DNA from: Methylobacter sp. | GTDB lineage: Bacteria > Pseudomonadota > Gammaproteobacteria > Methylococcales > Methylomonadaceae | Direction of reading: 5' to 3' | DNA length: 64,000 bases | Assembly (NCBI GenBank): GCA_030653175.1 | Contig: JAURZV010000090.1 | Location: 1 to 64,000 of the forward strand | Program-made: the position numbers and the translations under genes | The notes under the pieces: generated by a model | Told to the model about the DNA's origin: nothing | Database searches by the model: none | The model's input: the letters and a program-made list of their open reading frames with translations, nothing else | In this document: piece after piece, positions 6,300 to 9,897 of the stretch | Layout of the letters: each line of letters begins with the position of its first letter | How positions within the stretch are numbered: position 1 is the stretch's first letter

Positions 6300-7466
6300 T
6301 TAACTTCCGCCATCCGGCCAAGCCGACAGCATCTCCAATGCCAGCTGCGCCATATTTTTTGAACCGCCGCCCTGCCCTAACTGCTGTTTAGCTAAGCTCA
6401 GGTTTTGGCGCATTTCATCGGCATAGGCTTTATCGGTCAAAATCCGAGTAACTTCTGCCGCCAGGTTTTCGGCTGTCGCATCATGCTGAATCAGTTCTTT
6501 TATGATGCTTTTGCCTGACACAATATTCGGCAAGCCTATAAAAGGCGTATTGACCAGCCATTTGCCCAACCAATAGGTTAACGGTGAAAGCTTGTAGGCG
6601 ATGACCATGGGTACGGTTAACAAGGCGATTTCCAGCGTTGCGGTGCCTGATGTGGTCATCACCGCGTCACAACATTGAATGACATCGTAAGGCTGATTTT
6701 TTATTACCGTTATGGCTAGCGGCGACTGGCGGATGTAGTCTTCAAGCAATGCATCGCTGATTGAATCGGCTTGCGGCAAAATAAACTGACAATCCGGCAA
6801 ACCGGCCTGCACTGTTTCGGCGGCGGCCAGCATGACCGGCAACATGCGCTTGATTTCGTTGGCGCGACTGCCGGGCAATAAGCCGACAATCGGTTTGTCT
6901 TTATCCAGCCCGAAACGGGCTAAATCTTCATCTTTGCTGTACCGGGCATGGACTTTGTCTACCGAAGGATGCCCCACATAGCGCACCGGCACTTTTTCGG
7001 CATCGTAATAAGCGGTCTCAAACGGGAAGATCACCGCCATCATGTCGATGACTTGGCCGTAAGCTTTTACCCGGCCCGGCCGCCATGCCCATACTTGAGG
7101 ACTGACGTAAAACAAAACTTTAATGCCCTGCCGCTTGGCGTAACGCGCCAGCTTAAAGTTGAACTCCTTGTAGTCTACGCAAACCAGCAAGTCGGGGCGC
7201 TCGGTTGCTACCAACTCTTGCATCAGTTTTAGCGCACGGCGGATTTCGGCATAATGTTTGATGACTTCAACCACGCCGATGACGGCGATGTTGGCCGAAT
7301 CATAACGAATGTCGATACCCGCCTGGGCCATTTTTGCGCCGCCCATGCCGATGCCTTTAATGTCCGGCTGCTGTTTTTTCAGCTCAACAAACATATTGGC
7401 GGCATGTTGGTCGCCGGATGATTCCCCGGCGCTGAATAGGATGGTTAATGATTTATGTTGAGGCAT
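6300..7466 (-). CDS. lpxB: Lipid-A-disaccharide synthase
   Basis: 388 residues, the usual length of LpxB. It is the peripheral-membrane glycosyltransferase (GT19) that joins UDP-2,3-diacyl-glucosamine and lipid X to make the beta-1,6 disaccharide of lipid A. Visible signatures are the N-terminal SAGESSGDQHAANM, VCVDYKEFNFKLARYAK, SPQVWAWRPGRV, LPGSRANEI and the SGTATLE segment. Two genes upstream on the same strand encode GnnA- and GnnB-like enzymes, so this LpxB probably works on amino-substituted (GlcN3N-containing) precursors. A palindromic repeat lies between lpxB and gnnB. Confidence 0.95.
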   Translation of the reverse strand: MPQHKSLTILFSAGESSGDQHAANMFVELKKQQPDIKGIGMGGAKMAQAGIDIRYDSANIAVIGVVEVIKHYAEIRRALKLMQELVATERPDLLVCVDYKEFNFKLARYAKRQGIKVLFYVSPQVWAWRPGRVKAYGQVIDMMAVIFPFETAYYDAEKVPVRYVGHPSVDKVHARYSKDEDLARFGLDKDKPIVGLLPGSRANEIKRMLPVMLAAAETVQAGLPDCQFILPQADSISDALLEDYIRQSPLAITVIKNQPYDVIQCCDAVMTTSGTATLEIALLTVPMVIAYKLSPLTYWLGKWLVNTPFIGLPNIVSGKSIIKELIQHDATAENLAAEVTRILTDKAYADEMRQNLSLAKQQLGQGGGSKNMAQLALEMLSAWPDGGS

Positions 7467-7558
7467 GGGGAAAAGAAAGTCTCGTTCTCAAGCTTATTAA
7501 CTTGGGCTATGTCATCTAAATATTGAACATAACTCATGCTGGATTACGCGTATGCAAA

Positions 7559-7624
7559 GGAGTGCAAGCTTCGCCTAAAGCGCCTACTTTTGGTGCTTGT
7601 GCTTGCAGGCGAAGCCTGCACTCC
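7559..7624. repeat. Nested palindromic repeat between gnnB and lpxB
   Basis: The arms GGAGTGCAAGCTTCGCC (7559-7575) and GGCGAAGCCTGCACTCC (7608-7624) pair at 16 of 17 positions. Inside them AAGCGCC and GGTGCTT form a second small stem. The arrangement resembles a REP doublet (BIME) and would sit in the mRNA between the two genes. Confidence 0.7.
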
Positions 7625-7635
7625 AGCAGTCTTAT

Positions 7636-8733
7636 CTACGTCGTCAAAATATCCCGAATAACCGCCACTATCCCCCTGATTGTGTCATCCTCAAGAGACG
7701 GGCAAATCGGCAATGACAAACAGTTGGCCGCAACAAACTCGGTCACCGGCAAACTGACGCCTGCATATTCCTGTTTAAACACATTTTGCCGGTGCAAAGG
7801 CACTGGATAATACACGGCACAGGCGATTTGTTTATCCTGCAAGGCTTTCATGACCTCATCACGACGGTCGCATAACACGGTGTACTGGTGATAAACGTGC
7901 TCACCCAGACCATCTTCAAACGGCGTAGTCAACGGCAAATCGGCCATCAACTCCGAATACAGATGTCCGGCATGACGGCGGCCTTTATTGTATTGATCGA
8001 TACGTTTCAATTTGGCTCTTAAGATTACCGCCTGCATTTCATCAAGGCGACTGTTGTAACCGATCACATCATGATAATAACGGACATCCGAGCCATGGTT
8101 ATGCAGCATTTTTAGTTTTGCCGCAGTCTCGTCGGAATTGGTGACGACGAGGCCGCCATCGCCAAACGCACCCAGATTTTTGCTGGGAAAAAAACTGAAA
8201 CCGGCCGCATGGCCGATAGCGCCGGTTTGTTTGCCGTTGATGCTCGCACCGAAAGACTGGCAGCAATCTTCAATCAGCTTTAAATTATGCCGGTCGCATA
8301 GCTGTTTAATTGCTGCCATATCGGCCGGTTGACCGAACAAATGCACCGGCATGACCGCTTTGGTTTTGGGGGTAATGGCTTGTTCTATGGCTTCCGGCGA
8401 GATATTGAAAGTCTTGGGGTCTATGTCGACAAAAACAGGAATCGCACCGACATATTTGATGGCTTCCGCCGTAGCGATAAAGGTGAACGCGGTGGTAATC
8501 ACTTCATCGCCCGCGCCGATACCTTCGGCAATCAATGCCAGATGCAGCGCATCGGTTCCTGAAGCCACCGCAATGGCATGTTTAACGCCCAAATAATCGG
8601 CCGCTTCTTTTTCAAAAGCCTGAACATTAGGCCCTAATATAAACGAACAATTTTCGATTGTTTCAGCCAGCCCACGTTCAATTTCATCTTTAATTTCAAC
8701 GTATTGAGCTTTCAGGTTTACCATTGGTATCAT
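7636..8733 (-). CDS. gnnB: DegT/DnrJ-family aminotransferase, probable GnnB
   Basis: 365 residues, PLP-dependent sugar aminotransferase of the DegT/DnrJ/EryC1 family. Signatures: NLKAQYVEIKDEIE at the N-terminus, VASGTDALHLAL binding the cofactor phosphate, IEDCCQSFGA, and the Schiff-base lysine in FFPSKNLGAFGDGG. Homologues include WbpE/WlbC-type enzymes acting on 3-keto UDP-sugars. Its position between a Gfo/Idh/MocA oxidoreductase and lpxB points to GnnB, which aminates the 3-keto group of UDP-GlcNAc-3-ulose. That makes UDP-GlcNAc3N, the precursor of lipid A with amide-linked acyl chains at position 3. Alternative: a Wbp/Wlb-type O-antigen enzyme. Confidence 0.75.
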   Translation of the reverse strand: MIPMVNLKAQYVEIKDEIERGLAETIENCSFILGPNVQAFEKEAADYLGVKHAIAVASGTDALHLALIAEGIGAGDEVITTAFTFIATAEAIKYVGAIPVFVDIDPKTFNISPEAIEQAITPKTKAVMPVHLFGQPADMAAIKQLCDRHNLKLIEDCCQSFGASINGKQTGAIGHAAGFSFFPSKNLGAFGDGGLVVTNSDETAAKLKMLHNHGSDVRYYHDVIGYNSRLDEMQAVILRAKLKRIDQYNKGRRHAGHLYSELMADLPLTTPFEDGLGEHVYHQYTVLCDRRDEVMKALQDKQIACAVYYPVPLHRQNVFKQEYAGVSLPVTEFVAANCLSLPICPSLEDDTIRGIVAVIRDILTT

Positions 8734-8774
8734 GTTTTATTGCCTTTATGTTTATCGATTGATTGTGCTCAAGC

Positions 8775-8933
8775 GGGATGGGGTTTGCAACCCCGTCCCT
8801 AACGTTTTCGCCAGACCCGAACCAAACGGCTATTCAAACCAGATCAAAACGTTTCGGACGGGGCAACATGCCCCGTCCGGCTGTTGAAGTACGCCCTTAC
8901 GGGCGTACGAATTCCCACGCCGGAGCGTGGGAA
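8775..8933. repeat. Cluster of four palindromes filling the gnnA-gnnB gap
   Basis: Four palindromes in a row. Two near-palindromes lie at 8775-8799 (GGGATGGGG ... CCCCGTCCC) and 8855-8879 (CGGACGGGGC ... GCCCCGTCCG), with AACGTTTT/AAAACGTT pairing between them. They are followed by GTACGCCC-ttac-GGGCGTAC (8889-8908) and TTCCCACGC-cgga-GCGTGGGAA (8912-8933). The last resembles the TTCCCACGCG arms of the repeats at 59-62 kb. REP-type elements seem to have accumulated here inside an operon. Confidence 0.75.
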
Positions 8934-8946
8934 CTATTAAACCCGG

Positions 8947-9897
8947 TTATTTATCGCCTAATAATCGGGTGATTGCTGTCGCAGTTTCCAGCGCTCTTTT
9001 TCCTGCTTCACCGGAAACCAGCGGGTTGTCCCCGGTATGAATGCAGTTAACGAAATGCTTGATTTCTTCCAGCAAGGCATCGCCGCTTTCAAAAACGGAT
9101 TCTTCCGTTTCTATTTCAGGAATGCCGGGGAACATTTCTTTTTTACCGGTACGATGTTTGGTTAAAACACGATTCTGGAAATCCACAGAAACGTAAGAAG
9201 ACGGCCTGAACATGCGCATTTTGCGCTCCATCTTCATGCTGATCCGGCTGGCCGTAACATTAGCCACGCAACCGTTTTTAAACAGCAACCGGGCATTTGC
9301 AATATCGGTGCCTTGCGTTAAAACCGCCGTGCCGCTGGCATCAATCCGTTCCACCTCGGAATCCACCAAGGCTAAAATAATATCGATGTCATGTATCATT
9401 AAATCCAGCACTACGCTGACATCATTGGCACGCGGATTAAACGGCGCCAACCGGTGGGACTCAATAAACAGCGGTTTTTCTTCCTTGTCCAGCCCCAATA
9501 CCGCCGGGTTAAATCGTTCCAGATGCCCCACCTGCAAAATTAAATCTCTTTCATTGGCAATGGCGATCAACTCATCGGCTTCTGCAACCGTCACGGTAAT
9601 CGGTTTTTCAACCAGCACATGAGCACCGGCATTAAGAAAATCCCTGGAAACCTTGTGATGGAGTGTCGTAGGCACGACAATACTGACTGCATCAACTTCA
9701 CCTAATAGGGATTGATAGTCTGTCAGCGCTGTTGTACCGTGCTTTTCGGCGATTTCTTTAGCTGCGGCCTCATTAATATCGACAACGGCAACCAGTTCAC
9801 AATCAGACAGCGACGCATATTTTTCTGCGTGAAATTTACCCAAGTAACCGGCACCGATAACAGCGCATTTTAATTTTTTCATGTGATAATTATACAT
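8947..9897 (-). CDS. gnnA: Gfo/Idh/MocA oxidoreductase, probable GnnA
   Basis: About 311-316 residues. NAD(P)-binding Rossmann fold at the N-terminus (AVIGAGYLGKFHAEKY), the family's EKPITVT motif with the catalytic lysine, then the C-terminal Gfo/Idh substrate domain (LMIHDIDIILAL). ATG at 9882 (MKKLKCAVIG) is more typical than 9897; neither has a clear ribosome-binding site. Next to an aminotransferase and lpxB it fits GnnA, which oxidises the 3-hydroxyl of UDP-GlcNAc with NAD+. In Acidithiobacillus ferrooxidans gnnA and gnnB are likewise found near lpx genes. Function is inferred from family plus context. Confidence 0.75.
   Translation of the reverse strand: MYNYHMKKLKCAVIGAGYLGKFHAEKYASLSDCELVAVVDINEAAAKEIAEKHGTTALTDYQSLLGEVDAVSIVVPTTLHHKVSRDFLNAGAHVLVEKPITVTVAEADELIAIANERDLILQVGHLERFNPAVLGLDKEEKPLFIESHRLAPFNPRANDVSVVLDLMIHDIDIILALVDSEVERIDASGTAVLTQGTDIANARLLFKNGCVANVTASRISMKMERKMRMFRPSSYVSVDFQNRVLTKHRTGKKEMFPGIPEIETEESVFESGDALLEEIKHFVNCIHTGDNPLVSGEAGKRALETATAITRLLGDK

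What the first reader, a model, noticed from the sequence alone, without database searches (positions are those of the whole stretch)
6300..9897. gnnA-gnnB-lpxB operon points to a diamino-sugar lipid A
Three leftward genes encode a Gfo/Idh/MocA oxidoreductase, a DegT-type aminotransferase and LpxB. Established for A. ferrooxidans and L. interrogans: GnnA and GnnB turn UDP-GlcNAc into UDP-GlcNAc3N, so LpxA adds an amide-linked acyl chain. The placement next to lpxB makes this the likely role here, which would give a lipid A with four amide-linked chains. The lpxA gene is not in the window.
Basis: partly seen in the sequence, partly recalled or inferred. Interest (0 to 1): 0.72.

Follow-up and report, generated by a model that had tools for sequence, protein, structure and literature searches.

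The report
Second LpxA completes diamino-sugar lipid A
A methane-eating bacterium carries genes for making an unusual nitrogen-rich sugar for its outer-membrane lipid anchor, and elsewhere in its genome it keeps two different versions of the enzyme that attaches the first fatty chain, which suggests a mixed lipid rather than the all-amide one first proposed.

Summary
The three genes are real and at the stated coordinates: GnnA-like dehydrogenase, GnnB-like aminotransferase and LpxB. Public records call the genus Methylobacter (inferred). The missing lpxA matters: the genome has two. LpxA1 is ordinary, beside fabZ. LpxA2 is divergent (about 34% identical to LpxA1), and in all 8 gnnA genomes sampled from five other families of the order it lies next to gnnA, as lpxA2-gnnA-gnnB-lpxB or a shorter form. 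In 234 genomes of the order, gnnA and LpxA2 are both present in 207, both absent in 19 and split in 8. LpxB, LpxC, LpxD and LpxH have one full match each here, so only the first acylation is doubled. In 30 LpxA1 and 41 LpxA2 compared, a sugar-pocket residue (E. coli Lys76) and the acyl-length residue (Gly173) differ without exception. Best reading: GnnA-GnnB-LpxA2 is a dedicated UDP-GlcNAc3N branch beside the ordinary branch, giving a hybrid GlcN3N/GlcN lipid A, as proven in Capnocytophaga canimorsus with two lpxA plus gnnA/gnnB. Four amide chains are not supported. No chemistry was tested.

The parts
8947..9897 (-). gnnA: UDP-GlcNAc 3-dehydrogenase (Gfo/Idh/MocA family); true start perhaps 9882
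   Evidence: best PDB match 7bvj 228.8 bits, next 83.8; best NCBIfam NF040723 UDP-GlcNAc 3-dehydrogenase 227.9 bits, below its cut-off of 450; E97-K98-P99, D165 and H169 invariant in the 8 aligned rows (their catalytic role is recalled)
7636..8733 (-). gnnB: PLP-dependent sugar aminotransferase (DegT/DnrJ/EryC1/StrS)
   Evidence: in a tree of 46 rows it lies in a 39-row group of aminotransferases from gnnA loci, apart from WbpE
6300..7466 (-). lpxB: lipid A disaccharide synthase, the only LpxB match in the genome
   Evidence: TIGR00215 311.7 bits, over cut-off; one match in own genome

Best explanation
The window holds three quarters of a UDP-GlcNAc3N branch of lipid A synthesis in a Methylobacter-like methanotroph. 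GnnA oxidises C3 of UDP-GlcNAc and GnnB transaminates it, giving UDP-GlcNAc3N. A dedicated second acyltransferase, LpxA2 (contig C91:90275-91045, outside the window), then puts an R-3-hydroxyacyl chain on the 3-amine. The ordinary LpxA1 (C25:67596-68354, beside fabZ) acylates the 3-hydroxyl of UDP-GlcNAc, probably with a shorter chain. The single LpxC, LpxD and LpxH process both products, and the single LpxB, which in this lineage sits with gnnA instead of with lpxA1, joins them. The most likely product is a hybrid backbone with one GlcN3N and one GlcN (three amides and one ester among the primary chains), as in Capnocytophaga canimorsus. Shown here: genes, gene order, co-occurrence, residue split. 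Inferred: enzyme activities, sugar and chain selectivity, and the lipid A structure.
For: Two LpxA over the curated cut-off in the own genome, 334 and 257 bits. LpxA2 lies next to gnnA, upstream on the same strand, in all 8 genomes of families f2-f6 that have gnnA in the 41-genome set: lpxA2-gnnA-gnnB-lpxB in G027, G028, G034, G039; lpxA2-gnnA-lpxB in G025, G032, G026; lpxA2-gnnA in G040; also in named L092 Methylococcus sp. UBA6136. Co-occurrence in 234 genomes at least 90% complete: 207 both, 4 gnnA only, 4 LpxA2 only, 19 neither (counted by eye). 206 of the 211 LpxA2 genomes also have a second LpxA-like match, so both are kept. The four order-mates with lpxB but no gnnA match (G030, G031, G036, G037) have lpxB straight after lpxA with lpxD upstream; in 27 of 31 gnnA genomes lpxB is with gnnA instead. 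Position 76: Lys in 30 of 30 LpxA1, in none of 41 LpxA2 (23 Gly, 16 Ser, 1 Gln, 1 Ala); position 77: Tyr 30/30, Phe 41/41; position 173: Met 30/30, Gly 41/41; His125 and Asp126 kept in all 71. The pocket table of PMC7072397 has Lys here in P. aeruginosa, E. coli, B. fragilis and H. pylori but Gly71 in L. interrogans (passages), the GlcNAc3N user. LpxA2's best PDB match is that LpxA, 3hsq (173.8 bits, next 164.3). C. canimorsus: two lpxA genes, gnnA, gnnB, and a GlcN3N'-GlcN backbone over 95% (passages).
Against: No chemistry of Methylococcales lipid A was found to test it. Two LpxA are not the rule for gnnA: of 16 named gnnA genomes searched, 11 have one LpxA over the cut-off and 5 have two. 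Loss of Lys76 is not a general mark: among other gnnA-bearing rows (recounted), 7 of 9 rows that I labelled single-LpxA (6 of the 9 checked), 4 of 4 Geobacter rows, 4 of 8 Desulfobacterota-type rows and both Rhodocyclales LpxA2-like rows keep Lys. The LpxA tree does not join L. interrogans LpxA with LpxA2 (long branches), so the likeness is not shown to be descent. Four genomes have gnnA without LpxA2 and four the reverse. In the own family lpxA2 is not beside gnnA. Bulk fatty acids of Methylovulum psychrotolerans list only beta-OH-C16:0 as hydroxy acid (passages), not the C10 acid that Met173 in LpxA1 would suggest. The genomes are related, so the co-occurrence is not 234 independent trials.
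Confidence: 0.6

Rival explanations
1. One reading: both sugars become GlcN3N and all four primary chains are amide-linked, as in Leptospira (recalled) and Phyllobacterium.
For: GnnA, GnnB and LpxB present; Phyllobacterium trifolii, with gnnA and gnnB, has a backbone of two GlcN3N (PMC5644692, abstract start, passages). LpxA1 could in principle also accept UDP-GlcNAc3N.
Against: A second LpxA-like match is kept beside LpxA2 in 206 of 211 genomes, and the 30 LpxA1 compared have the canonical Lys76-Tyr77 and differ from 41 LpxA2 at positions 76, 77 and 173 without exception; a redundant copy would not be expected to be kept so strictly.
Confidence: 0.17
2. The two LpxA forms give two whole lipid A types, switched by conditions (for instance temperature or methane supply), rather than one hybrid molecule.
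For: In the own genome lpxA1, lpxA2 and gnnA-gnnB-lpxB are on three contigs, so separate control is possible; the difference at position 173 predicts different chain lengths; the beta-OH-C16:0 to C16:0 ratio rises in the cold in M. psychrotolerans (passages).
Against: In seven of the eight f2-f6 loci lpxA2 and lpxB are together, and the single LpxB must serve both forms; no expression data seen.
Confidence: 0.13
3. gnnA/gnnB serve an O-antigen or capsule sugar, and the second LpxA only broadens acyl-chain choice, as proposed for Segatella copri, which has two LpxA.
For: Two LpxA with different chains are proposed in S. copri (passages of PMC12643348; the word gnnA does not occur in its main text); GnnB's family includes O-antigen enzymes such as WbpE, and two aminotransferases that lie directly beside a gnnA (L132, L162) do group with WbpE.
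Against: gnnA is bound to lpxA2 and lpxB by gene order and co-occurrence; the window's GnnB is apart from WbpE; its GnnA is far from 3q2i.
Confidence: 0.06

Closest known systems
GnnA/GnnB of Acidithiobacillus ferrooxidans (UDP-GlcNAc3N pathway)
   Same: Same two enzyme families; window GnnA is 42% identical to the 7bvj chain, which I recall to be A. ferrooxidans GnnA
   Different: Here the genes form a unit with lpxB and, in relatives, with an lpxA of their own; activity is not tested here
Capnocytophaga canimorsus lpxA / lpxA' with gnnA, gnnB (hybrid GlcN3N'-GlcN lipid A)
   Same: Two lpxA genes together with gnnA and gnnB (PMC3342949, passages)
   Different: There lpxA, lpxA', lpxC and lpxD cluster; in the relatives here lpxA2 clusters with gnnA, gnnB and lpxB. 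Its LpxA sequences were not compared here
Leptospira interrogans LpxA (3hsq; UDP-GlcNAc3N-selective, recalled)
   Same: Gly-Phe at the Lys76-Tyr77 place; Gly76 in 23 and Phe77 in 41 of 41 LpxA2; closest solved structure to LpxA2 by a small margin
   Different: Does not group with LpxA2 in the tree; its number of LpxA was not checked
Segatella copri and other Bacteroidetes with two LpxA
   Same: Two divergent LpxA in one genome
   Different: Explained there by acyl-chain choice; gnnA is not mentioned in the main text

Membership tests
GnnA (UDP-GlcNAc 3-dehydrogenase) | Sequence relation to solved GnnA well above other Gfo/Idh/MocA enzymes | tested here: met
   228.8 bits to 7bvj against 83.8 for the next and 35.4 for 3q2i; that 7bvj is GnnA and 3q2i a WlbA is recalled
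GnnA (UDP-GlcNAc 3-dehydrogenase) | Curated NCBIfam cut-off for NF040723 | tested here: not met
   227.9 bits against a cut-off of 450; that model is for the archaeal enzyme by its name, so this bars only that equivalog
GnnA (UDP-GlcNAc 3-dehydrogenase) | Oxidises UDP-GlcNAc at C3 | not testable with these tools
   needs enzyme assay
GnnB | Groups with aminotransferases of gnnA loci and not with WbpE | tested here: met
   39-row group, SH-aLRT 87; WbpE in a separate 4-row group (100), which also holds L132 and L162, two aminotransferases beside gnnA; quick tree, midpoint root
GnnB | Transaminates the 3-keto sugar | not testable with these tools
   needs enzyme assay
WlbA/WbpE O-antigen enzymes | Closest relation to WlbA and WbpE | tested here: not met
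LpxB | TIGR00215 over cut-off | tested here: met
   311.7 against 190.25 bits
LpxA (for LpxA2) | TIGR01852 over cut-off and catalytic His125 | tested here: met
   257.3 against 231.05 bits; His125 and Asp126 in 41 of 41 rows compared
UDP-GlcNAc3N-selective LpxA | Groups with L. interrogans LpxA in a tree | tested here: inconclusive
   Not grouped, but long branches; pocket residues alike
UDP-GlcNAc3N-selective LpxA | Uses UDP-GlcNAc3N and not UDP-GlcNAc | not testable with these tools
   needs enzyme assay
Hybrid GlcN3N/GlcN lipid A system (C. canimorsus type) | gnnA, gnnB and two lpxA in one genome | tested here: met
Hybrid GlcN3N/GlcN lipid A system (C. canimorsus type) | Equal GlcN and GlcN3N in purified lipid A | not testable with these tools
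   needs chemistry

The most novel reading that the evidence does not exclude
Most of an order of methanotrophs builds an asymmetric lipid A on purpose: two specialised LpxA enzymes, split in both sugar choice (pocket residue 76) and acyl length (ruler residue 173), feed one LpxB that was moved into the gnn operon and has become selective for the GlcN3N donor, so that each half of the molecule has its own first enzyme.
Probability: 0.4. Interest if true: 0.62.

Novelty: new variant of a known kind. Interest (0 to 1): 0.5.

Why it matters
I found no described lipid A structure for gammaproteobacterial methanotrophs in ten paper searches (several of the lists were cut short, most hits were seen only as listings, and subscription journals are mostly not held). 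A genome-scale model of Methylomicrobium buryatense books its LPS as 'lipid IVA and KDO' (passages). Methylococcus capsulatus meal is tested as a feed protein (abstract start), so the endotoxin type is of practical use. For enzymologists, an LpxA pair in one cell with clean differences at two pocket positions makes the basis of the choice between GlcNAc and GlcNAc3N directly testable.

Tried and rejected
Rejected: an O-antigen role for the window's GnnA/GnnB. Rejected: that the whole pathway is doubled; LpxB, LpxD, LpxH and LpxC have one match over the cut-off each in the own genome (LpxH also has a 41.6-bit paralogue). Rejected as proof: Lys76 loss as a general mark of GlcNAc3N use, because many gnnA genomes keep Lys. 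Rejected: descent of LpxA2 from or with L. interrogans LpxA. Not decided: chain lengths. Met173 in LpxA1 hints at a short chain (the switch is recalled from work on E. coli and P. aeruginosa LpxA; PMC7072397 names Met169 the acyl chain ruler, passages), whereas bulk fatty acids of a relative list only beta-OH-C16:0. 7b0d is GnnB's best solved match, but I could not tell what enzyme it is. Rows left out: and the tree used 61 hand-picked rows (59 of the 116 rows plus two PDB chains; the 116 hold 90 distinct sequences); of the LpxA rows from Desulfobacterota-type loci 8 were used and others left out; one Rhodocyclales LpxA-like row (L145) was dropped because my frame extension gave only 11 residues. 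One search used 30 LpxA1 (five of them from genomes without a gnnA match: G016, G030, G031, G036, G037) and 41 LpxA2, namely the best 30 of the 211 plus 11 others, so the split is shown for these and not for all. The 41-genome and 234-genome sets overlap. The table was made by eye; three genomes without gnnA are not named and were inferred by exclusion (G029, G031, G262). The check of where a stop lies near the gnnA start gave no output.
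Full report
Observation. The window holds three minus-strand genes as reported: lpxB 6300-7466, a DegT-type aminotransferase 7636-8733 and a Gfo/Idh/MocA dehydrogenase 8947-9897. Family searches agree: TIGR00215 for LpxB at 311.7 bits (cut-off 190.25), PF01041 at 433.7 bits and PF01408 at 111.6 bits. The best solved relative of the dehydrogenase is 7bvj at 228.8 bits, with 83.8 for the next and 35.4 for 3q2i. I recall 7bvj as A. ferrooxidans GnnA and 3q2i as a WlbA; the tables call them only 'Oxidoreductase, NAD-binding' and 'dehydrogenase'. The aminotransferase scores 384 bits to 7b0d, 317 to QdtB and 311 to WbpE. In a quick tree of 46 rows it lies in a group of 39, all from gnnA loci, apart from the four-row group with WbpE. 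Two aminotransferases that lie beside a gnnA (L132, L162) do fall in the WbpE group, so being beside gnnA is no guarantee; the window's own gene is not among them.

Organism. Named contigs of Methylobacter sp. (L083, L084; GnnA 93% and 92% identical) lie in G041 and G042, whose LpxA coordinates are identical to those of G010 and G006. So the window is, by inference, from a genus that public records call Methylobacter, order Methylococcales.

Two LpxA. The genome has two over the curated cut-off. LpxA1 (C25:67596-68354, 334 bits) lies between fabZ (197.7 bits, over the TIGR01750 cut-off) and ribonuclease HII (287 bits, over cut-off), with no lpxB between them. LpxA2 (C91, 257 bits) lies beside xerD (392.5 bits, over the TIGR02225 cut-off). 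The two kinds are on average 34% identical, and 79% and 73% within each kind. LpxA1's best solved match is P. aeruginosa LpxA 5dem and LpxA2's is L. interrogans LpxA 3hsq by a small margin (173.8 against 164.3 bits); the organisms of both entries are named in PMC7072397 (passages).

LpxA2 belongs with gnnA. All 8 genomes of families f2-f6 that have gnnA in the 41-genome set have lpxA2 next to it, upstream on the same strand: lpxA2-gnnA-gnnB-lpxB in G027, G028, G034 and G039, lpxA2-gnnA-lpxB in G025, G032 and G026 (contig ends in lpxB), and lpxA2-gnnA in G040. The gap between match ends is 1 to 43 bases in seven and 188 in one. In the own family the unit has split. In 234 genomes of the order that are at least 90% complete, taking an E-value at or below 1e-65 with the LpxA2 query as LpxA2 (genomes with LpxA1 alone give about 1e-42 to 1e-51), 207 have both gnnA and LpxA2, 4 gnnA only (G024, G067, G118, G147), 4 LpxA2 only (G093, G140, G142, G205) and 19 neither (counted by eye). 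These genomes are related, so this is not 234 independent trials. Of the 211 with LpxA2, 206 also keep a second LpxA-like match.

Only the first step is doubled. The own genome has one match over the cut-off each for LpxB, LpxD, LpxH and LpxC. The place of lpxB is telling: in the four order-mates with lpxB but no gnnA match (G030, G031, G036, G037) it directly follows lpxA with lpxD upstream, whereas in 27 of 31 gnnA genomes with an LpxB match it lies just downstream of gnnA. Among 80 named gnnA loci, 50 have LpxB on the same strand within 3.5 kb downstream, 33 have GnnB within 3 kb and 26 have an LpxA on the same strand within 2.5 kb (some contigs end early, so these are lower bounds).

Residues. 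Numbered as in E. coli LpxA, position 76 is Lys in 30 of 30 LpxA1 and in none of 41 LpxA2 (23 Gly, 16 Ser, 1 Gln, 1 Ala), position 77 is Tyr against Phe, and position 173 is Met against Gly, with no exception in either set; His122, His125, Asp126 and His160 are kept in all 71, and His144 in 30 of 30 and 34 of 41. In P. aeruginosa the equivalent Lys72 was modelled to touch the 6-hydroxyl of GlcNAc, and a table of pocket residues gives Lys for P. aeruginosa, E. coli, B. fragilis and H. pylori but Gly71 for L. interrogans (PMC7072397, passages; the row for A. baumannii was cut off). Position 173 is the acyl-chain ruler (Met169 of P. aeruginosa is so named there). Three gnnA-bearing cases outside the order with two LpxA show a split at position 76: an Ectothiorhodospiraceae MAG (Lys, and Ser in the copy touching gnnA), Simiduia aestuariiviva (Lys and Ser) and Legionella bononiensis (Lys and Thr). 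Three further Legionella LpxA have Thr and two Thioalkalivibrio LpxA have Ser. Against this, 7 of 9 rows that I labelled single-LpxA, 4 of 4 Geobacter rows, 4 of 8 Desulfobacterota-type rows and both Rhodocyclales LpxA2-like rows beside gnnA-gnnB keep Lys. Nor is a second LpxA general: 5 of 16 named gnnA genomes have two over the cut-off and 11 have one. The residue is therefore a mark of specialisation in pairs, not a general test for GlcNAc3N use.

Meaning. The best reading is a forked first step: GnnA, GnnB and LpxA2 for UDP-GlcNAc3N, LpxA1 for UDP-GlcNAc, then shared LpxC, LpxD, LpxH and LpxB. The closest precedent is Capnocytophaga canimorsus, with two lpxA genes, gnnA, gnnB and a GlcN3N'-GlcN backbone over 95%, in which three primary chains are N-linked (PMC3342949, abstract start and passages). 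By the same logic Methylobacter would have a hybrid rather than an all-amide lipid A. Hybrid backbones are also reported in Campylobacter jejuni, Acetobacter pasteurianus and Granulibacter (PMC8036547, passages), while Phyllobacterium trifolii has two GlcN3N (PMC5644692, abstract start). An all-amide lipid A or a switch between two forms is not excluded. A result that does not fit neatly is that bulk fatty acids of Methylovulum psychrotolerans list beta-OH-C16:0 as the only hydroxy acid (PMC6460317, passages); I did not see in those passages how far their method frees lipid A chains.

Novelty. lpxA duplication has been noted before (Geobacter sulfurreducens, PMC3087551, passages; Segatella copri, PMC12643348, passages), and gnnA/gnnB with two lpxA in C. 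canimorsus. An operon in which gnnA and gnnB travel with their own lpxA and with lpxB, across an order, was not found in ten paper searches; several lists were cut short and most subscription journals are outside that library. The key paper on L. interrogans LpxA was not held.

Noticed in passing
Genomes G029, G035, G256, G257, G258, G259, G260, G262 (same order, family f6, genus g8): 8 of the 10 genomes of this genus in the 234-genome set have no LpxA match at 1e-35, no gnnA (G262 by exclusion) and no LpxC; of the two tested further, G029 and G035, neither has LpxB or an LpxD over the cut-off. Yet 7 of the 8 keep the LPS transporter LptD. The other two, G040 and G261, have both LpxA, gnnA and LpxC. 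Loss of lipid A with the transporter kept suggests another outer-leaflet lipid.
   Followed up: partly
L135, L137, L145 (Rhodocyclales): gnnA-gnnB followed by an LpxA that scores somewhat higher to LpxA2 than to LpxA1; two of the three were put in the tree, where they join LpxA2 but on long branches.
   Followed up: partly
L169 and L179 (Simiduia aestuariiviva): Two LpxA genes in tandem, 13 bases between match ends, one with Lys and one with Ser at position 76, about 3 kb from a gnnA-gnnB-lpxB run on the other strand.
   Followed up: no
G249 and G235: Two gnnA matches each; in G249 one is 91% identical to the window's gene and one 85%, so one copy may be a contaminant or a transfer.
   Followed up: no
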